A stretch of 64,000 nt of DNA from Stenotrophomonas aracearum (GTDB lineage: Bacteria; Pseudomonadota; Gammaproteobacteria; Xanthomonadales; Xanthomonadaceae): positions 2,677,001 through 2,741,000 of the forward strand of contig NZ_CP115543.1 of the NCBI RefSeq assembly GCF_031834615.1, written 5' to 3'. Both the position numbers and the translations under genes were made by a program. Shown piece after piece: positions 17,816-35,600 of this stretch; position 1 is the first letter of the stretch, and each line of letters starts with the position of its first letter. The notes beneath the pieces were generated by a model. It was not told the origin of the DNA. It worked only from the letters and a program-made list of their open reading frames with translations, and made no database searches.

Positions 17816-17946
17816 GCTATGGGGCTGTCCTGCGGCTTCAAAGGGCGCAAGGTTACCGGAAGGTCCCCGGCCGCGCACGCTGCGGCCGAACGTGACATTT
17901 GACGGAAGTCACGGCACGTCCACGGCTCAAGCGTAAACTTATCGTT

Positions 17947-18792
17947 ATGCGCCTCCTCCCCACGGTTGTCGCAGGACACTGGCACGGCTGGCTCCTGCTC
18001 CTGATGTTGACCACCCCCATCCTGTCGGCCGATGCCCGCCAGGGCGAGCCTGCGCCGCGCCTGCTGAAGATCGCCACGCTGGAGCTGCCGGTGGGCGACG
18101 ACAGCGAGTGGGAACAGCGCCGCGACCAGCTGCTGCAGGTGCTGGAGGGGCTGCAGCCGGACGTGATCGCGGTGCAGCGGGTGCAGCAGTCGCAGGGCCG
18201 CAACCCGGCCTGCTGGCTGGCGACCCGGCTGCGCTACAGCTGCGACTTCGTCACCGCCGACCCGCCCAGCCAGCGCCTGCGCCATGGCAGTGCCATGCTC
18301 AGCCGGCTGCCGGTGTCCGAGGACGGGGTGACCCTGCTGCATCCGCCGGGCCAGTTCAGCACCGCCGGCATGCTGCGGGTGAAGCTGCAGGAAGCGCTGG
18401 TCAACATCTATGTGGCGCGGCTGCGTCCGGACCCGGACGAGCCGACGGTGCGCCAGCACCAGACCAGCGACCTGATGACCTGGATCGGGGCCACGTCCGA
18501 TGGGTTGCCGTCGCTGATCGCAGGCGACTTCTCCGCCGACACCGAAGAGCTGGTCAGCAGTTCGCCGGGCTTCCAGCCAGCGCGCAAGAATCCCGGGGAG
18601 CGGGTCGACCCGCCCTCGCTGGTCGGCGTGGCCGGCGGGCATGGCCTGGATGTGTTGTTCCAGGTATCCCATTTCGCCAGCCAGGGCCTGCAGCCGGTGA
18701 AGCTGCCCGCGCCGGAGGGGTCCGAAGGCGGCGGGGTTCGACTGGGGATCATCGCCACGCTGCGATTGCAGGACCAAGCAGCTACAAGGTAG
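17947..18792 (+). CDS. Degenerate endonuclease/exonuclease/phosphatase-fold protein, exported
   Basis: This 281-residue exported protein has a hydrophobic segment at residues 14-30. It is clearly a paralogue of the EEP enzyme at 31770-32612: the frame RRxQxLxxLExLQPDxIAxQ and the IAGDF block align. The catalytic positions have changed. The metal-binding Glu (QEV) is Arg78 (QRV), the ATHL histidine is lost (YVARL), GDFN reads GDFS, and the terminal SRIDHIF reads HGLDVLF. I infer a non-catalytic or altered function. The ATG at 17947 has no clear ribosome site; an in-frame start at 17899 is possible. Confidence 0.72.
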   Translation: MRLLPTVVAGHWHGWLLLLMLTTPILSADARQGEPAPRLLKIATLELPVGDDSEWEQRRDQLLQVLEGLQPDVIAVQRVQQSQGRNPACWLATRLRYSCDFVTADPPSQRLRHGSAMLSRLPVSEDGVTLLHPPGQFSTAGMLRVKLQEALVNIYVARLRPDPDEPTVRQHQTSDLMTWIGATSDGLPSLIAGDFSADTEELVSSSPGFQPARKNPGERVDPPSLVGVAGGHGLDVLFQVSHFASQGLQPVKLPAPEGSEGGGVRLGIIATLRLQDQAATR

Positions 18793-19702: not shown

Positions 19703-20182
19703 ATGCGCAAACCCCTACTCCTCCTGCTCGCCATCCTCCTGCTGGTCGGCGGCCTGGTCGGCATCAAACAGCTGCAGCGCGCGCCTGCGCCGCAGTTCGC
19801 CCCTTCGCTCACCCAACCCGACACCGGCACGGCACCCCCCGCCAGCGCCCCGGCCAACCCCGGTGCCACGGCGCAACGTTCCGCCGATGCCCTGCCCGCC
19901 TTCCTGCCACCGGAGGCGCGCCAGACCCTCGTGCTCATCCAGCGCGGCGGGCCGTATCCGCACCGCCAGGACGGCAGTGTTTTCAGCAACCGCGAACAGC
20001 GCCTGCCCGACCGGCCGCGCGGTTACTACCGCGAGTACACCGTGGACACGCCGGGCGCCGGCAACCGTGGCGCACGCCGTATCGTGACCGGCGGCACCCC
20101 GCCGACCGGTTGGTTCTACACCGACGACCATTACGAGACCTTCCGCAGTTTCGAGGTCCCACCTGCCGGGAGCTGGCAATGA
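19703..20182 (+). CDS. Secreted guanyl-specific ribonuclease (barnase / RNase N1-T1 fold)
   Basis: This 159-residue protein has an N-terminal hydrophobic segment (residues 4-20) that serves as signal peptide or anchor, a Pro/Ala/Thr linker to about 65, and a C-terminal microbial RNase domain. The expected catalytic residues are visible as Glu111 (YREYT), Arg125/126 (GARRIV) and His143 (TDDHYETF). It should cut RNA 3' of G outside the cytoplasm. The next gene overlaps by ATGA and encodes a barstar-like inhibitor that protects against premature folding inside the cell. A REP element sits in its leader. Confidence 0.86.
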   Translation: MRKPLLLLLAILLLVGGLVGIKQLQRAPAPQFAPSLTQPDTGTAPPASAPANPGATAQRSADALPAFLPPEARQTLVLIQRGGPYPHRQDGSVFSNREQRLPDRPRGYYREYTVDTPGAGNRGARRIVTGGTPPTGWFYTDDHYETFRSFEVPPAGSWQ

Positions 20183-20595
20183 ATCACGATGCATTCGAAC
20201 TGGGCCTGGACGACATCAACAATGCCGGCGTGTACGCGATCGGCAACGATGACATCGGGCCGTTGTCCGCGGCAATGCGCGATGCGGGGCTGCGCGTGGC
20301 CACCATCGACCTGGCCGGCTGCCACGACAAGCGCACGCTGCTGACGCGCATGGCGACGCAGCTGGATTTCCCCAGGACTTTTGGCGGAAATTGGGATGCG
20401 CTGCTCGACTGTCTTCGCGACCTGTCGTGGCTGAAGGCGAATGGCTATGCGCTGTTTTTCAGCGATGCCGATGGCCTGCGGGGCGATGCGGAGAAGGATT
20501 TCGATACGTTGCTGGACGTGCTGGATGAAGCCTGCCAGGCGTGGGCCGAACAGAACGTGCCGTTCTGGGCGTTCCTGGCGGTGACCGAGGCGTAG
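20179..20595 (+). CDS. Barstar family ribonuclease inhibitor
   Basis: This 138-residue protein has a barstar core in residues 39-125. The RNase-binding helix reads FPRTFGGNWDALLDCLRDL. Asp73 and Asp77 correspond to barstar Asp35 and Asp39, which contact the barnase active site, while barstar Trp38 is replaced by Leu. There is an N-terminal extension of about 35 residues and no signal peptide, so it is cytoplasmic. The start codon overlaps the RNase stop (ATGA), which indicates translational coupling. Its stop codon TAG is part of the GTAG that opens a REP dimer. Confidence 0.88.
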   Translation: MNHDAFELGLDDINNAGVYAIGNDDIGPLSAAMRDAGLRVATIDLAGCHDKRTLLTRMATQLDFPRTFGGNWDALLDCLRDLSWLKANGYALFFSDADGLRGDAEKDFDTLLDVLDEACQAWAEQNVPFWAFLAVTEA

Positions 20596-26786: not shown

Positions 26787-29700
26787 ATGAAGCGAATGCT
26801 GATCAACGCCACGCAGGCTGAAGAGCTGCGGGTTGCCATCGTGGATGGCCAGACGCTGTACGACATCGACATCGAACAGCCGTCCAAGGAACAGAAGAAG
26901 TCGAACATCTACAAGGGCCGCATCACGCGCCTTGAACCGTCGCTGGAAGCGGCCTTCGTCGAATACGGTGGCGAACGCCACGGCTTCCTGCCGCTGAAGG
27001 AAATCTCCCGCGATTACTTCCAGGCCGGGGTCGACCACAACAAGGCGACCATCCGCGAACTGCTGCGTGAAGGGCAGGAAGTGGTGGTCCAGGTCGACAA
27101 GGAAGAGCGTGGCAACAAGGGCGCCGCCCTGACCACGTTCATCTCGCTGGCCGGCCGCTACATGGTGCTGATGCCGAACTCGCCCACCGCCGGTGGCGTC
27201 TCGCGTCGCATCGAGGGCGAAGACCGCGCCGCGCTGAAGGAAGCGCTGGACAAGCTGAACATCCCCGACGACATGGGCGTGATCATCCGCACCGCCGGCG
27301 TCGGCCGCGATGCCGAAGAGCTGCAGTGGGACCTGGACTACCTGCTGCAGGTCTGGAAGTCGATCGCCGAAGCGGCGCTGACCAAGCCGGCCCCGTTCCT
27401 GATCTACCAGGAATCGCGCCTGATCGTGCGCGCCCTGCGCGACTACCTGCGCGCCGATGTCGGCGAGATCCTGGTGGACACCGAGGAACTCTACGAGACC
27501 GCCCGCGAATTCATGCAGCAGGTGATGCCGCAGACTCTGCGCAAGCTGAAGCATTACAAGGACGACATCCCGCTGTTCAACCGCTTCCAGATCGAATCGC
27601 AGATCGAAGGCGCGTATGAACGCAACGTGCGCCTGCCGTCCGGCGGCTCGATCGTGGTCGACCAGACCGAAGCGCTGACCGCCATCGACGTGAACTCCTC
27701 GCGCGCCACCAAGGGCAGCGACATCGAGGACACCGCGTTCCAGACCAACCTGGAAGCGGCCGAGGAAGTGGCCCGCCAGCTGCGCCTGCGCGACCTGGGC
27801 GGCCTGGTGGTGATCGACTTCATCGACATGTCGTCGAACAAGCACCAGCGCGAAGTGGAAAACCGCCTGCAGAACGCGCTCAAGTACGACCGCGCGCGCG
27901 TCCAGCTGGGCCGCATCTCGCGCTTCGGCCTGATGGAAATGAGCCGCCAGCGCCTGCGTCCGAGCCTGGGCGAGTCCAGCCAGATCGTCTGCCCGCGCTG
28001 CGACGGCCATGGCCGCATGCGCAGCGTGGAGTCGCTGTCGCTGTCGATCATCCGCGTCGCCGAAGAGCATGCGATGAAGGAGAACACCGGGCAGGTGCTG
28101 GTCCAGGCCCCGGTCGAGATCGCCAACTACCTGCTCAACGAAAAGCGCAACGCGCTGCGTGAGATCGAACAGCGCCACGACGCGCCGATCGTGATCGTCG
28201 CCGACGAGCAGCTGCACACCCCGCATTACGAAGTGACCCGCCTGCGTGAAAACGAGCTGGGCGAAGACAGCGGCCGTCCGAGCTACCAGCGCGGCACCCC
28301 GCGCAAGCTGCCGGTGCACGCCCTGACCAAGGCGCAGCTGAACATTCCGGCCGCCCCGGCGGTGACCAACGTCAAGCACAGCTCGCCGGCGCCGGTGCGC
28401 GAAGTGGCCGAACCGGTCGCTGCACCGGCACCGGTCGCCCCCGCCCCGGTCGCTGCACCCGCCGCTACCGGCGTGGTCGGCTGGCTCAAGCGCATCTTCG
28501 GTGGCGAACCGGCACCGGCCGCCGCCCCGGCGCCGGCTGCACGCCCGGCCCAGGACGGCAACCGCAACGGTCGCAACAAGGACCGCAACGGCAAGGACCG
28601 CAATGGCCGTCGCGATGAGCGTGGCGAGCGCGGCGAGCGGTCCGCCGGCCAGGGCCAGAACCAGGGCCGTGGCAAGGACCGCCGCGACGACCGTGGCGAG
28701 CGCGGTGGCAAGGGCGAGCGCCGTGAAGGCGAGCGCCGCGACGAGCGCCGCCAGGACGCGACCGTCCAGGCGACCGCCCCGAACGCCGGCCAGCCGCAGC
28801 AGGGCAAGCAGCGCAATGAGCAGCAGCCCAAGGCGCCGCGCAACGAACAGCAGCCCAAGCTGAACCAGAACCAGGGCCAGAAGCAGAAGCAGCCGCGCCA
28901 GCAGAATGAGGGCGACAAGCCGCAGCGTCAGCCGCAGGCCGAAAACGCCAAGCCGGTGCAGAACGACGCCACCGTCGCCGATGCCGCGCTGGTCGCCGCC
29001 GCTGCGGTGACCGTGGCCGACGCCGCCACCCCGGCACCGGCTGCGCCGGTCGCCACTCCGGTGGCAACCCCGGCCGCTGCGGACGACACCCAGGCCGCCG
29101 TGGTCGAAGGCGACGCCGGCGAGCACGGTGAAGCACCGGGCACCGCCGATGACGCTGCGGGCGAAGGCGCCTCGCGCCGTCGTCGTGGCCGTCGCGGTGG
29201 CCGTCGCCGCCGTCGTGGCAATGGCGAGCAGGCTGCCGGCAGCGAAGGTTCGATCGACGATGCAGGTCTGGATGACGACGCCGAGAGCGACGAGCAGGAC
29301 AACGACCAGGACGGCGACACCGCCGCCCCGGCCGCACGTCCGGCCGTGACCCAAGGCCAGCCGCAGCCGGAGTTCGACTTCGACGATGAAGGCGCTGCAG
29401 CCTCCGCTCCTGCTGCTGCTCCGGCTCCGGCTGCACCTGCGCCGGCACCGGTCCAGGCCCCGCGCCCGGCCCCGGTCGCCGCCGTGGCTGCCGCCGCGCC
29501 GCTGGCCGTGGTCAGCAGCCCGGTGGTGACCGCTGGTCACGCCGAGCCGACCCCGGCACCGGCCCCGAAGGCCGAGCCGGTGGCCGAACGTGCGCCGTCC
29601 TACACCGACCGCGTGCCGTTCGTGGAGTCGCCGATGCCGGTGGCTGCCCCCGTGGCTGCGCCGGTGGACGCTGCACCGCAGGCGGAAAAGCCGGTGGCTG

Positions 29701-30224
29701 CTGAAGCGCCGAAGGCCGTTGAAGCCGCAGTCGTGACCGAGGCGCCGAAGGCTGTCGAAGCGCCGGTCGTTGCCGAAGCACCGAAGGCGGTCGAGGCTCC
29801 GATCGTGACCGAGGCACCGAAGGCGGTTGAAGCTCCGGTCGTGACCGAGGCTCCGAAGGCTGCCGAAGCTCCGGTTGTGGCCGAAGCACCGAAGGCTGTC
29901 GAAGCGCCGGCCGTGACGGATGCGCCGAAGGCAGTCGAGGCCCCGGTGGCGGTCGACGCACCGAAGGCCGCAGACGCCATCGACGCCCAGCCCGAGCGCA
30001 AGGGTCCGACCGAAGTCGGTCGTCCGGTCCAGACCCGCATGCTGGAGCCAACCCCGGTGGCGCAGACCGGCCAGCTGTTCGGCAGCGTCCAGAGCGACGC
30101 CGCCCCGACCGACGCCGCCGCCCAGGCCGCGCACGCCGAAGCCCGCGAAGACATCCCGACCGATGAACTCGCCCCGGCCGAAGCCGCCGCCAAGGAAGAA
30201 CAGGACAAGGCCGACAAGCCCTGA
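26787..30224 (+). CDS. rne: Ribonuclease E
   Basis: This 1145-residue essential endoribonuclease and degradosome scaffold has a conserved N-terminal catalytic half (about 1-530). The S1 domain begins [21 protein letters not shown], the DNase I-like catalytic region has [19 protein letters not shown] and [11 protein letters not shown] (the two metal aspartates), and the zinc-link is CPRCDGHG. After about residue 560 the sequence is disordered. [11 protein letters not shown] looks like the amphipathic membrane-binding helix, followed by an Arg/Asn/Gly/Gln-rich RNA-binding region, acidic and Ala/Pro-rich stretches and a tail of 12-residue repeats. The ATG at 26787 follows gagg; the open frame upstream is untranslated leader. 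Confidence 0.96.
29706..29975 (+). repeat. Tandem 36 bp repeats in rne ([12 protein letters not shown] units)
   Basis: Seven full units and one partial 12-codon unit of consensus [12 protein letters not shown] occur in frame near the rne 3' end. Nucleotide divergence between units is mostly silent or Val/Ile/Ala changes, showing selection for the peptide. Such arrays expand and contract by slippage. Confidence 0.85.
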
Positions 30225-30300: not shown

Positions 30301-30388
30301 GCATGTGCGGGGCCCGGAAAACTCGACAACCCGTTAACGCAACAGGGCGCATCGTCCTGCACGCGGGGGCGCACGTTGAGAGACTGCC

Positions 30389-31747
30389 ATGGCTTCTCCC
30401 TCCGGCGCACTTAATGCGCCCGCCCGCTATCGCTATGACGCCGAGAATGTGCTGGTCTCTACCGGCACTGCCAGTCGACCCCAGTGGCGTTACTGGCGTG
30501 ACAAGACGGTGGTTAATGCCGCAGGGGAAGGCCGCGAACTAAGCTGGGCGTACTGCGCGGGCCAGCGGATTGCCACCAAACGCAGTGGGATCGGCGGCGG
30601 CCCGATCGCGACCCTTCTGGCAACGGATCCATCGGGCTCCGTGTTGATGGAGGCTGATCTTGGCGTGCGCAGCCAGCGCTATACACCTTCTGGCTACCTG
30701 CCCTCGGAGAGAACCGAGCTTCATCCCGCCTACAACGGCGAACTGCTGGACAATCCGAGCGGTTGCTATCTGTTGGGTGCGGGCCACCATCGCCCTTACA
30801 GCCCAACCCTGCAGTATTTCCTTGCGCCGGATGCGCTCAGCCCGTTCGGCAAAGGCGGTACGAACGCGTACGCGTATTGCGCGGGCGATCCGATCAACCG
30901 CACTGACCCGACAGGTAACTTCTGGAAATGGGTACTGGCCGCAGCCAGTGTTGCCCTGGCCGTCGTGAGCGCTGGCACACTCATAGCGCCCTTGCTTGCA
31001 GGCACCGCCGCACTAACGGTTTCCTCAGCTGTTGGAATTGGGGCGGCTCTAGTGGGGGTAGCGGCCGAAGCGGGCTCGCTGATTGCGGAAGGTCTCGGAG
31101 ATCACACCACGGCAGGAATTCTTGGTGTCATGGGCATGTTCGTCAACGTCTCCCAAGTGGCCATTGCAATACCATCCGCCGCGAAGAAGGCCGCCATGTT
31201 TGTTTCAGAACTACGCGAGCACGGCTACAAGATTGCCGATGCGATGAATCCTTCGGGCGGCTGGCACACGGGAGGCTACCTGAAGCTGCGTGATGCGTCC
31301 CCTTACTCGCCACGGCCGCCGGCATCGACCAAGCCACACGTGTATTACATGCCGGGAAAGAAGAGCAAGACAAAGTGGTCATCACCGGTAGCTATAGCAC
31401 CAAGCGGACCTACGGTTCCCCCGGTCGACTACAGCGTCATTGGGACTGAAGCGCAGACCATCCTTCGGATGATCCATAGCGGCGCTCCGATGAAGTATCC
31501 GCAACACGATGGTATGCCGTTCCAGAATTATGAGAAGTTCCTTCCGCGTGCCCAGCCAGGCGATTACCTGGAATACACCGTTCCCACGGCCGGCGTGTAC
31601 GGTCGGGGCCAACAGAGATTGGTATTGGGCGACTATGTACCGAATGGGCCGGCGGGGCCAAGGGTCGTGTATCACACAACCGATCACTACAAGACGTTCT
31701 TCGAGGTGAAGTTCCCGATGACGATGGACCCCTGGTATCCCCGCTGA
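30389..31747 (+). CDS. Short Rhs-core protein with C-terminal guanyl-specific RNase toxin
   Basis: This 452-residue protein has an N-terminal remnant of YD/Rhs repeats (about 10-115) and the RHS core motif (LLDNPSGCYLLGAGHHRPYSP through LAPDALSPFGKGGTNAYAYCAGDPINRTDPTG, 119-176). A hydrophobic glycine/alanine stretch follows (about 181-265). The variable C terminus ends in a microbial RNase domain (about 345-452) with Glu395, Arg410 and His433 in the barnase-like arrangement (DYLEYT, GQQRLV, TTDHYKTF). It lacks the large Rhs beta-shell, a signal peptide and neighbours for delivery. No immunity gene lies in the 22 bases to the next gene. AT-richer codons than its flanks suggest transfer. Confidence 0.8.
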   Translation: MASPSGALNAPARYRYDAENVLVSTGTASRPQWRYWRDKTVVNAAGEGRELSWAYCAGQRIATKRSGIGGGPIATLLATDPSGSVLMEADLGVRSQRYTPSGYLPSERTELHPAYNGELLDNPSGCYLLGAGHHRPYSPTLQYFLAPDALSPFGKGGTNAYAYCAGDPINRTDPTGNFWKWVLAAASVALAVVSAGTLIAPLLAGTAALTVSSAVGIGAALVGVAAEAGSLIAEGLGDHTTAGILGVMGMFVNVSQVAIAIPSAAKKAAMFVSELREHGYKIADAMNPSGGWHTGGYLKLRDASPYSPRPPASTKPHVYYMPGKKSKTKWSSPVAIAPSGPTVPPVDYSVIGTEAQTILRMIHSGAPMKYPQHDGMPFQNYEKFLPRAQPGDYLEYTVPTAGVYGRGQQRLVLGDYVPNGPAGPRVVYHTTDHYKTFFEVKFPMTMDPWYPR

Positions 31748-31769: not shown

Positions 31770-32612
31770 CTACGGCGCGAACTGCAACCTTGCCCACACG
31801 CCGTAATGGTCCGACGCCCAGCGGCCTTCTGCATACGGCTGGTCGAACAGCAGGCGCGCCTCGCGCGCGACCAGCTGGTCCTGCTGGAAGAAGATGTGGT
31901 CGATGCGCGAGGGTGCTTCGTAGTAGTGCCGGTTGAGCGTGCTCACCTGCGCCAGCTGGTTGTTCACGTGCACGCTGCCGTAGCTGTCGCCGTAGCGCTG
32001 GCGCAAGGCGCTCAGATCGCCGGCATCCACCAGCGCGTTGAAGTCGCCGGCGATCACCACCGGCGCGTCGCCGGACGTGGCGGCAATGTATTGCAACAGA
32101 TCCGCCACCTGCTCGCCCCGGATACGTCCGCCGTTCTCGTCCGAACGTTCGTTGAGGTGCGTGGCGTACACGTTCACCGGCTGGCCGTCGACATCGATGC
32201 GCAGGTGCGCCACGGTGCGGTAGTCGGTGCGCGGCGCCAGCAGGTGCTCGCCACGCGCCAGCACCGGACGACGGGTCAACAGCGCATTGCCGTAGCGCTT
32301 GAAGCGCCCCGGCGGATCGGTCGACACGAACTGGTAGTCGTAGCCCAGCTTGCCTGCCAGCCACGCCGCCTGGTTGCGCACGTACGGCTTCTGGATCACT
32401 TCCTGCAGCGCGATCGCGTCGGGCTGCAGCGCCTCCAGTTCGCGCAGGATCACCTGCCGACGCTGTGGCCAGTCTTCGCGGTCATGGTGCAGGTTGAAGG
32501 TCACCATGCTCATGCCCGGCGCCTGCGGTTCGGCCGCGCGCGCCGGCAGGATCGCCAGCGCGCACGCGACCAGCATGCACCGCATGCCGGCCGCTACCCA
32601 CCGCGCGCTCAT
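31770..32612 (-). CDS. Exported endonuclease/exonuclease/phosphatase (EEP) family enzyme
   Basis: This 280-residue exported protein has a signal peptide at residues 8-26 (ILPARA) and a canonical EEP catalytic set: Asn40 (VTFNLHHD), Glu71 (ALQEV), the His in YATHLNE, GDFN, and the terminal SRIDHIFF. Family members hydrolyse phosphodiesters or phosphate monoesters, including sphingomyelin, DNA and inositol phosphates. The substrate here is unknown. Its ATG overlaps the glycosidase-like gene stop by four bases, so it is the last gene of the glycan operon. That position suggests removal of a phosphate or phosphoglycerol substituent from the imported glycan, but this is inference. Confidence 0.85.
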   Translation of the reverse strand: MSARWVAAGMRCMLVACALAILPARAAEPQAPGMSMVTFNLHHDREDWPQRRQVILRELEALQPDAIALQEVIQKPYVRNQAAWLAGKLGYDYQFVSTDPPGRFKRYGNALLTRRPVLARGEHLLAPRTDYRTVAHLRIDVDGQPVNVYATHLNERSDENGGRIRGEQVADLLQYIAATSGDAPVVIAGDFNALVDAGDLSALRQRYGDSYGSVHVNNQLAQVSTLNRHYYEAPSRIDHIFFQQDQLVAREARLLFDQPYAEGRWASDHYGVWARLQFAP

Positions 32613-35600
32613 GGCGCCTTGCGTTCGGCGCGACGCACCGAGGCGGGAATCTGCACGTCGACCTTGGCCGGCACCTGGGTGATGCGCAGCTCGCCGTTGA
32701 TCCACTGCGCGGGTTCACCGTTGATGGTGGCCTCGCCCGGCTCACCGCTGTACGGCCACGGCAGCACCAGCCCACCCTGCGGTACCACCAGGCCCGGCTG
32801 CACCTGCAGGGTCAGCAGCTTGTCGCTGCGGCTGAGCGAATAGCCCAGCTGGCCATACGGCGTGCGCAGACCCTTGATGGCTACGCCCTGCCCTTCAAAC
32901 CAGCGGACCGGAACGCCCGCCGCCAGCACCAGGCTGTCGTCAACGTCGCGGGTGTAGGCGAACATGTCCAGCGCCGAGCGCACGAAGTCCGAGGCCACCC
33001 ATGCATGCGGCAGGTCGCCGACGAAGAACGGCTTGCGCGGCGTATGCGAGACCACCTCGGCCCACTGGTTCCACGCCTGCGGCGCGCGGTCCTTGAAGAA
33101 GAACTCGGTGGCCTGCCAGGCGCGGTCGCGCCAGCCCAGGCGCACGAACGCGGCCACATTGCGCCACTCGTACGGGGTGTAGTCCTTCCATTCGCGCTTG
33201 CCGTCGCGGCGCGCTTCGAACTCCTTCCAGTACCGCTCGAAGGTGTTGTTCAAATAAGGCTGCGGCAACCTGCCCTGCTCGCCGGCCGGGGCCAGCGCGA
33301 TGGTGGTCGAGGTTGCATCGAAATCGCCGAGCTCGGCCGAACCTGGCAGGAAATCGATCCTGTGCAGCGCGGTGGCCGCCAGCAGCGAAGCCTGCAGGTC
33401 GTCACGGAACTGGTCGCGCGACTCGGCGATCTGCATCGCCTCGACCTTGCCCAGCGTGCTGGCGATCACCGCCGCGTCCTTGTAGCCGCGCAGCGCCCAG
33501 AAGTTGTCCCAGTACGAATGCATCGGCTTGGCCGAATAGCCTTCGTGGCTGATCGACACCGGCATCATTCCGTAGAAGGCCGCGTTGCGCGCGCGGTTCT
33601 CTTCGGTGCGTTCGCTCAGGCGCAGCTGCTCCATGTACTGGTACGCGCCCTGCACATGCGGCCACATCAGCTCCAGGAAGGTGCTGTCGCCGGTGTAGCG
33701 CCAGTACTCGGCGATGTTGAAGATCAGTTCGCCGTGGCTGTCGTTCTCCGGCACCGGGTCGGCGCCGCGCGGGTCCACGCAGCACGGCACCTTGCCGTTG
33801 TCGAACTGGTACGGCGCGTACCAGTTCACGTACTCGCGCACTGCGTCGCTGCGGCCCATGCGCAGCAGGCCTTCGGAAATCATCGCGCCGTCGCGGATCC
33901 AGCTGCGCGAGTACGAGCGCGTGCCCGGCTGCAGGCTGGGCCCGATCCGCGAGATCAGCATGTGCGCCAGCGCGGTGCGCAGGGTGTCGGCCAGCGGCTT
34001 GCCCGCCGTCGGTACCTGCAGCGAGACCTGGTCCAGCTTGGTGCGCCACATCGAGGCGACCTGCTGCTGCGCCTTGTTGGCGTCGAAGTCCTTGGGCGTG
34101 GTCCAGCTGCCGGTCTGCGGCAGCACGATGGCGACCTCGCGCGTCTGGCCCGGTTCGAGCCGCCACTTGTACAGAAGCGCGCCCGAGGCCAGCCCGGTGG
34201 GATCTCGCACTTCGGTGGCGGTCGGCAGGTTGCCTGCGGCCAGATGAGTCACTTCCAGCTTGCCGTCGAACGGGCTGGCGAAGGCCGCATCCGGGGCCTG
34301 CACCGGGAACACGCGCGGCGTGCCGTTGACCTCGACCCGGCCCGGTTCGATATCGAGCCGGTCGATCCGGCTTACCCCGCCCACGGTGTTGAGGAACTGA
34401 CGCGGCGGATTCACCTGCCACGGCCGCACCGCCAGCGCCAGAGTGTAGTCGTGCGCGACCTTGTCCGGGTTGTGCAGCGTGTAACGACCGACCAGCTGCG
34501 CCTTGTCCGGGGTGCCCTGCACGAAGCCGGTCACCTTCAGCGCTGCCTGTGGGTGGCTCCAGTCGACGCTGGCGATCGGCAGGTAATCGTCCTGCAGCGA
34601 TTGCCTGCTGTCCACGTCGGCCCAGCTCAGCAGCTTCTTGTCGACCAGCACGAACGGTTCAACGCTGAAGCTGGCCTTGGCCGGTTCCAGCGCGCCGTCT
34701 TCACCGATCAGCGCCTGCTCCTTGCCGCCGTCCAGGCCCAGCAGGGTCCAGTACGGCTGCTCACCGCTGAAGCCGCGCGGCACGAAGCCTCGGGTCAGGT
34801 CGGCGCCGACCGATTCGACGAAGTCATTCGGGGTGGCGGCAAAGTCCAGCGGCTTGATCGAAATGTCGCGGATGCCGTAGCGCCAGCTGCGGCCGCTTTC
34901 CAGGTCGAAGCGCAGGTAGCGCGCTTCGGTATCGGGCAGCGCCAGCCAGTCGCGGTCGCCGCCGCCACCGGCAGTGATCTCGCGCAGCGTCTTCCAGTCG
35001 CGGCCGTCCACCGAGGAACGCACCACGTAACGGGTGGCTTCCAGGCCCGGCAGCCACTGGATCACCGCGCCGCCGAACTCGCGCACCTTGTGCAGGTCCA
35101 GGCTGATGGTCTGGTCGGGCACGCCGCCGCTGATCCACACCGTGTCGGGCTTGCCATCTGCAATCCGACTCTGCAGCGCGGTGGCGGTGTCGGCGATCAC
35201 CGACGGTGCCAGCGCCGAGGTATCGGCCGGCGGCAGCGGCTGCAGCGTGAGCCGGTCGAAGCAGACCGTACCGCGCCCGCCGACCTTGCTGTAAATGGTG
35301 AACTCGACCGCCGCGCTCTTGCGCAGGGTCTTGTCCGGGTCCGGGCCCCAGGCCTTGTCGATCTGGCGCTGGCGGTACTGCACCGGGCTCCAGGTCTTGG
35401 GGAAGGTGTAGCCGGGCCGGTTGACCCACCACACGTTGTCGCCGCTGGCGTCGATCAGCTTGAACTGCAGGTCGTTGCCGGGCGAATCGCCACGGATCTG
35501 GAAGCCCACCTGGTAGTTGTCCGGCCAGGTGACCGGCAGCTCGCGGCGGATCGCCACGTAGCCGGAGACCTCGTGGAAGTCGTAGTCCACGCACAGCGCA

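What the first reader, a model, noticed from the sequence alone, without database searches (positions are those of the whole stretch)
30389..31747. Orphan Rhs-core RNase toxin without an adjacent immunity gene
The protein keeps only a short Rhs core and a C-terminal guanyl-specific RNase domain with intact Glu395/Arg410/His433. It has no shell, no delivery genes and no immunity gene: only 22 bases separate it from the next, convergent gene. Its RNase domain is of the same family as the chromosomal RNase at 19703-20182, whose barstar-like inhibitor lies 10 kb away. I infer the barstar may protect against both, or that the Rhs tip is a captured and inactive remnant. AT-richer codons suggest transfer.
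Basis: partly seen in the sequence, partly recalled or inferred. Interest (0 to 1): 0.72.

Follow-up and report, generated by a model that had tools for sequence, protein, structure and literature searches.

The report
Stranded cargo half of two-part Rhs
This gene looks like the cargo half of a two-part toxin capsule: related bacteria encode the capsule's shell and several interchangeable toxic plugs as separate genes, and this strain appears to keep one RNA-cutting plug but to lack the shell.

Summary
30389-31747 encodes 452 aa: 176 aa of Rhs core region, a hydrophobic stretch and a guanyl-RNase domain with Glu395, Arg406, Arg410 and His433 intact. It is the only Rhs gene found in a complete 4.33-Mb genome; no immunity gene adjoins it.

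The interpretation changes. Five other Stenotrophomonas genomes carry, between nuoN and nusA, a shell gene (about 1,220 aa, no core) plus separate short genes like this one. Shells and shorts tile end to end onto fused Rhs proteins of Burkholderia and Rhizobium. Pantoea, Rahnella and Vibrio plasmids have the same two-part layout, cut elsewhere. I read the window gene as an interchangeable plug (autoprotease plus RNase cargo) whose shell is absent here. Assembly in trans is inferred.

In the arrays examined, shorts follow each other without immunity genes; nine of 25 short proteins carry PPxY motifs (not the window's), suggesting eukaryotic targets. Barstar cross-protection stays possible but is weakened: a key barstar-contacting Arg is invariant in 23 chromosomal RNase sequences examined and lost in five of five plugs. 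'Inactive remnant' is not supported: catalytic residues and leader are conserved, and three relatives' RNase tips show purifying selection.

The parts
30389..31747 (+). short Rhs gene (plug): 452 aa, orphan in this genome
30389..30916 (+). aa 1-176: last Rhs strands plus autoprotease core ending DPTG; the dyad Asp148/Asp173 (by alignment to solved Rhs proteins) is invariant in 18 of 18 aligned rows
   Evidence: catalytic role from PMC8765631 (passages)
30917..31435 (+). hydrophobic stretch and linker after the predicted cleavage point
   Evidence: reading of the sequence
31439..31708 (+). guanyl-specific RNase domain (aa 351-440) with Glu395, Arg406, Arg410, His433; Tyr381 stands where the barstar-contacting Arg is in the chromosomal RNases
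30321..30388 (+). 5' leader conserved in all five site-sharing genomes, with a GAG(A/G) ribosome-binding-like stretch
   Evidence: not found in the array loci
26787..30224 (+). left flank: rne (RNase E)
31770..32705 (-). right flank: endonuclease/exonuclease/phosphatase-family protein, convergent
19703..20182 (+). chromosomal RNase with a hydrophobic N-terminus; keeps the barstar-contacting Arg
20179..20595 (+). barstar-family inhibitor; homologue found in 88 of 91 genus genomes

Best explanation
The gene encodes one interchangeable plug of a two-part (split) Rhs toxin. In relatives a large shell protein without the Rhs core is made from one gene, and several short proteins, each holding the last Rhs strands, the aspartyl autoprotease and its own cargo, from others. 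A plug would close the shell in trans, cleave after DPxG and leave its cargo inside. Shown: the two halves tile onto fused Rhs proteins; the split recurs in other genera; the autoprotease dyad and RNase residues are intact; the gene has its own start and a conserved leader; no shell was found in this genome. Inferred: assembly, cleavage, delivery and eukaryotic targeting. In this strain the plug is stranded, a spare cargo with no shell; it stays harmless because it is poorly expressed or folded without the shell, or because barstar still holds it (not tested).
For: Shells align to Burkholderia fused-Rhs residues up to 1194 in 5 of 5 genomes; the window gene aligns from 1202, 12 of 16 array shorts from 1198-1204 and the other four from 1179-1184. 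The shell gene stops before the core in 5 of 5 Stenotrophomonas arrays; in 3 of 5 the first short lies in another frame, so it cannot be reached by stop read-through alone. Same layout in Pantoea stewartii, P. agglomerans, Rahnella and Vibrio plasmids and in G1050. The plug profile matches the last 163 residues before the end of a solved Rhs cocoon. All four other genomes with the plug at this site carry the split shell. The window genome's array site holds neither shell nor short gene.
Against: No complex shown; the structure model failed (pLDDT 32). In 2 of 5 Stenotrophomonas arrays (G005, G027) the first short follows the shell in the same frame, 3 bases after its stop, so occasional read-through into a fused protein cannot be excluded there. 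Two other genus genomes with short core genes (G057, G052) also have no shell hit, so shorts persist without shells. G029 has fused shells alongside shorts, as the displaced-tip model expects. No delivery apparatus found. The leader motif was not found in the array loci, so co-regulation is unsupported.
Confidence: 0.6

Rival explanations
1. Barstar of the chromosomal RNase operon is the immunity protein for this toxin too, so no local immunity gene is needed.
For: Barstar homologue in 88 of 91 genomes and in all five that carry the RNase plug at this site; the residues equivalent to barnase R83, R87 and H102 are kept in 5 of 5 plugs and the barstar keeps an Asp-x3-Asp pair.
Against: The residue equivalent to barnase R59 is Arg in 23 of 23 chromosomal sequences and Tyr, Gly, Gly, Asp, Lys in the plugs; in barnase, R59A raises the off-rate by two orders of magnitude (PMC11408511, passages). 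Barstars of G000 and G004 are 98% identical while their plugs are about 51% identical, so no co-adaptation is seen.
Confidence: 0.3
2. It is a dissociated tip left by C-terminal displacement: a silent donor cassette for recombination, not a subunit.
For: Displaced core-plus-tip fragments are a described fate of Rhs tips (PMC2935791, passages); G029 has fused Rhs plus shorts.
Against: In the five split genomes the shell gene carries no core and one search listed no longer core-bearing gene for tips to move into, apart from one G027 frame that the tool reads through a stop; start codon and leader conserved in 5 of 5; the 12 array cores aligned are 43-53% identical to the window's, unlike the near-identical repeats described for displacement; no immunity genes lie between the shorts.
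Confidence: 0.2
3. Captured, inactive remnant.
For: Shell absent here; RNase tip divergent and GC-poorer.
Against: Intact frame and catalytic residues; RNase-tip dN/dS well under 1 in the three relative pairs that are not saturated: 0.044/0.348, 0.144/0.77, 0.132/0.923. These do not involve the window copy, whose own tip comparisons are near or beyond saturation.
Confidence: 0.1
4. An internal toxin-antitoxin-like RNase with barstar as its antitoxin, as proposed for orphan rhs toxins in Salmonella.
For: Precedent PMC7043789 (passages).
Against: Antitoxin not adjacent; the plug keeps Rhs core and autoprotease dyad, which a purely internal toxin would not need; barstar contact residue lost.
Confidence: 0.06

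Closest known systems
Orphan TcC protein YenC3 of the Yersinia entomophaga ABC toxin (PMC11067744; passages read)
   Same: core-plus-cargo protein encoded away from its partner, completing a shell in trans; several cargo proteins per shell partner
   Different: TcC proteins there share about 680 N-terminal residues before the cargo and work with TcB and TcA; here the short protein has about 176 residues before the cargo, and SpvB (a TcB domain) was found in 0 of 9 Stenotrophomonas genomes
T6SS Rhs effectors such as RhsA of Pseudomonas protegens (7q97), and the 8h8a Rhs protein
   Same: Rhs cocoon and C-terminal aspartyl autoprotease region by sequence
   Different: RhsA is one fused protein with a PAAR domain (passages); here the protein is split and VipB was found in 0 of 9 genomes
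Short Rhs genes of bee-gut Snodgrassella alvi (PMC5727410; passages) and displaced tips (PMC2935791; passages)
   Same: arrays of short genes with core and differing tips
   Different: there a complete main gene heads the array; in S. alvi the toxins come with immunity genes
RNase Sa and barnase family (PF00545)
   Same: family by sequence, catalytic and, in the window copy, guanine-loop Phe, Asn, Glu residues
   Different: barstar-contacting Arg replaced; cargo of an Rhs plug

Membership tests
Rhs polymorphic toxins | Rhs core (TIGR03696) followed by a variable toxin tip | tested here: met
Rhs polymorphic toxins | Rhs-repeat shell in the same polypeptide | tested here: not met
   452 aa starting near the core; shell is a separate gene in relatives
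Rhs polymorphic toxins | adjacent immunity gene | tested here: not met
   likewise none between the array shorts
T6SS Rhs effectors | T6SS in the genome | tested here: not met
   VipB 0 of 9 genomes, control rang in E. coli
Tc toxin TcC subunit | 851-1,050 aa (97.2% of TcC, PMC7861908) | tested here: not met
   452 aa; criterion seen in passages
Tc toxin TcC subunit | TcB present | tested here: not met
   SpvB 0 of 9 Stenotrophomonas genomes; the control rang in one genome and the search found it in G1082
Tc toxin TcC subunit | TcA present | tested here: inconclusive
   PF18276 0 of 9, but the control was silent
Rhs aspartyl autoprotease | two catalytic Asp, the second in DPxG | tested here: met
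   D148 and D173 invariant in 18 of 18 rows, aligned to solved Rhs; cleavage itself not tested
Guanyl-specific RNase PF00545 | score over cut-off; catalytic Glu, Arg, Arg, His | tested here: met
Guanyl-specific RNase PF00545 | RNase activity | not testable with these tools
   needs purified protein
Displaced Rhs tips | core near-identical to an adjacent main gene; often without a start codon | tested here: not met
   43-53% identity to 12 array cores of relatives; ATG and leader conserved; no main gene here
Type II toxin-antitoxin | adjacent antitoxin gene | tested here: not met

The most novel reading that the evidence does not exclude
Rhs toxins have split more than once into a core-less shell gene and a set of separately encoded, exchangeable plugs (autoprotease plus cargo), so one shell can be loaded with any of several effectors, including plugs encoded far away or arriving by transfer. 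These systems carry no adjacent immunity genes because they act on eukaryotic hosts (PPxY and F-box-like tips). The window gene is a plug that has outlived its shell, and its RNase has drifted away from barstar control.
Probability: 0.42. Interest if true: 0.76.

Novelty: new variant of a known kind. Interest (0 to 1): 0.6.

Why it matters
If shell and plug assemble in trans, cargo choice in Rhs capsules becomes a matter of protein pairing, not recombination, and some 'orphan' short Rhs genes in databases are subunits and not debris. It also offers a natural test of how an RNase cargo is tolerated without a dedicated immunity gene: by barstar, by keeping the plug unfolded without a shell, or not at all.

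Tried and rejected
Structure prediction of the whole plug with a two-row alignment failed (mean pLDDT 32); nothing was drawn from it and no fold search was run. The class-level search (369 genomes, E <= 1e-15) matched only the window genome, and the family search (395 genomes, E <= 1e-12) matched four genomes, all Stenotrophomonas; both sample thinly and score a capped number of candidates. The phylum search with the shell matched 4 of 398 genomes. A leader motif shared with the array was looked for and not found. TcA absence is undecided (silent control). Barstar-RNase complex modelling was not possible with single-chain prediction. A T6SS-effector reading was dropped for lack of VipB. The idea that the two small ORFs before the plug in G005 are immunity genes was dropped, since the same pair sits in G077 without any plug.

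Full report
The observation. The open frame at 30389-31747 encodes 452 residues. NCBIfam finds the Rhs-associated core at residues 98-176 and Pfam a ribonuclease at 351-440, 47.6 bits against a cut-off of 24. Solved relatives of the domain are RNase Sa3 and Sa. The catalytic residues Glu395, Arg406, Arg410 and His433 are present. The stop lies 22 bp from that of the convergent nuclease gene. In the complete 4.33-Mb genome the only matches to the protein at E <= 1e-3 are itself and the chromosomal RNase.

The site. I compared the rne-nuclease junction in 70 genomes: the window and 69 stretches fetched, chosen because their nuclease orthologue scored over 400 bits; the other 21 of 91 genus genomes were not examined at this site. 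The plug is present in 5 of 70 (window, G004, G005, G027, G028). Of the 69 stretches, 66 reach rne; of these, 63 lack the plug, with gaps of 102 to 1930 bp, 51 of them 400 bp or less. Larger gaps that I inspected hold other genes or repeats. The plug-less genome whose nuclease is closest, G057, has a gap of 102 bp. With the same-species genome G004 the plug is about 51% identical while the nuclease is 97% identical, so the plug allele was most likely exchanged.

The relatives. In five genomes (G004, G005, G027, G028, G077) another locus carries a gene of about 345 aa (found in 5 of 5, 41-100% identical), a shell gene of 1217-1297 aa as called (some values include upstream in-frame sequence) and short core-plus-tip genes. 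nusA flanks it in 5 of 5 and nuoN in 4 of 5 stretches (the G027 contig ends first); tRNA-Met(CAT) genes lie there in the three of these stretches scanned. My ORF picker listed 16 shorts; one search shows 17 and a fragment in G005. As called, gaps between neighbouring same-strand shorts run from a 4-bp overlap to 36 bp, without an immunity-like ORF between them. One 404-aa gene follows the last short in G077 and has no Pfam match. The shell is found in 6 of 91 genus genomes at E <= 1e-20: split in those five, fused (two copies) in G029; not in the window genome, whose array site holds neither shell nor short. Core matches at E <= 1e-15 occur in 9 of 91 genomes; G000, G057 and G052 have short genes without a shell hit.

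The split. Shells align to residues up to 1194 of the 1607-aa fused Burkholderia Rhs in 5 of 5, and up to 1169-1171 (four) or 1189 (one) of the 1614-aa Rhizobium one. On the Burkholderia protein the window gene aligns from 1202, 12 of 16 array shorts from 1198-1204 and four from 1179-1184. Between shell and first short the frame differs in 3 of 5 Stenotrophomonas arrays and is the same in 2 (G005, G027), where 3 bases separate stop and start; over ten split loci it is the same in 3. Read-through into a fused first plug is thus not excluded in a minority, but it cannot supply the later plugs or the remote one. Pantoea stewartii, P. agglomerans and Rahnella plasmids carry a shell ending about 40 residues later (Burkholderia residue 1236; the Rahnella shell is broken into two frames) followed by three, two and two shorts; Vibrio cyclitrophicus has one short; G1050 is also split. 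The different break points suggest separate splits. Of the 17 shell loci I looked at, ten are split and seven fused; they were chosen by similarity, and most plasmid hits were not opened, so this is not a survey.

What the plug is. A profile of 18 plug N-parts (the window, 12 of the 16 picked array shorts, two fused proteins, three from other genera) matches the last stretch of solved Rhs cocoons, for example 8h8a residues 989-1151 of 1152. The two Asp residues that align with the catalytic dyad reported for RhsA (PMC8765631, passages) are invariant in 18 of 18. So the short protein holds the closing strands, the protease and the cargo.

Activity and constraint. In all five site plugs the catalytic Glu, Arg, Arg, His are kept; the guanine-loop Glu is Gln in G027. 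dN/dS of the RNase part in G005-G004, G005-G027 and G004-G027 is 0.044/0.348, 0.144/0.77 and 0.132/0.923; the other seven pairs, including all with the window copy, have a dS of about 1.9 or more, or saturated, and say little. The leader is conserved in 5 of 5.

Immunity. Barstar homologues were found in 88 of 91 genomes. Barnase Arg59 contacts barstar Asp35 and Glu76, and its loss raises the off-rate by two orders of magnitude (PMC11408511, passages; see also PMC6385678, passages). The equivalent residue is Arg in 23 of 23 chromosomal sequences I aligned (the window copy was counted twice, so 22 genomes of the 91) and Tyr, Gly, Gly, Asp and Lys in the plugs. The contacts of barstar Asp39 remain. 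Barstar could therefore bind more weakly; whether it protects is open. A survey of Tc toxins also reports no immunity genes and links this to eukaryotic targets (PMC7861908, passages). Here PPxY motifs occur in 9 of 25 short proteins (16 array, the window, eight from other genera), in six of them in two or more copies, above shuffled tails, and one P. stewartii tip has a weak F-box match, E = 2e-4, below the curated cut-off. The window tip has neither; an RNase could act on any cell.

Delivery. VipB was found in 0 of 9 genomes with short genes, with a working control; SpvB in 0 of those 9; TcA undecided. The route is unknown.

Literature. Searches covered open-licence papers only; the phrase 'split Rhs' has no occurrence in the 20 papers listed of 35 found. 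Closest is YenC3, an orphan TcC that works in trans (PMC11067744, passages). I read passages, not whole papers.

Verdict. A stranded plug of a split Rhs toxin is the best reading: the tiling is solid, the trans-assembly inferred, the fate of the plug in this strain open.

Noticed in passing
L033:1238-2297 (G005), and G077 at the same site (L046, 2756-3818 after reverse complement): A two-gene cassette (177 + 177 aa; 178 + 178 aa); the second protein looks HEPN-like by eye (R-x5-H type motif, not tested). It shares the window's insertion site and occurs with or without the plug.
   Followed up: no
L117:4858-6183 (G057): Another short Rhs gene with a weak RNase-family tip (21 bits, cut-off 24) in which the catalytic Glu seems replaced by eye; the picked neighbour (rluB-like) is convergent 43 bp away.
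   Followed up: partly
L102, L103, L104, L105, L106, L139: Short Rhs tips with PPxY motifs, 9 of 25 proteins examined.
   Followed up: partly
L138:3240-4268 and L139:3007-3871: Genes annotated as holin and lysozyme-like just upstream of split Rhs operons on Pantoea plasmids, a possible release route.
   Followed up: no
L102:6056-7090; L130:1472-2329; L131:1340-2308: A family without Pfam match (285-344 aa) sits upstream of both fused and split Rhs genes (25-56% identity).
   Followed up: partly
window 17899-18792 and 31770-32705: Two paralogous exo/endonuclease-phosphatase genes, one about 0.9 kb before the chromosomal RNase and one beside the plug.
   Followed up: no
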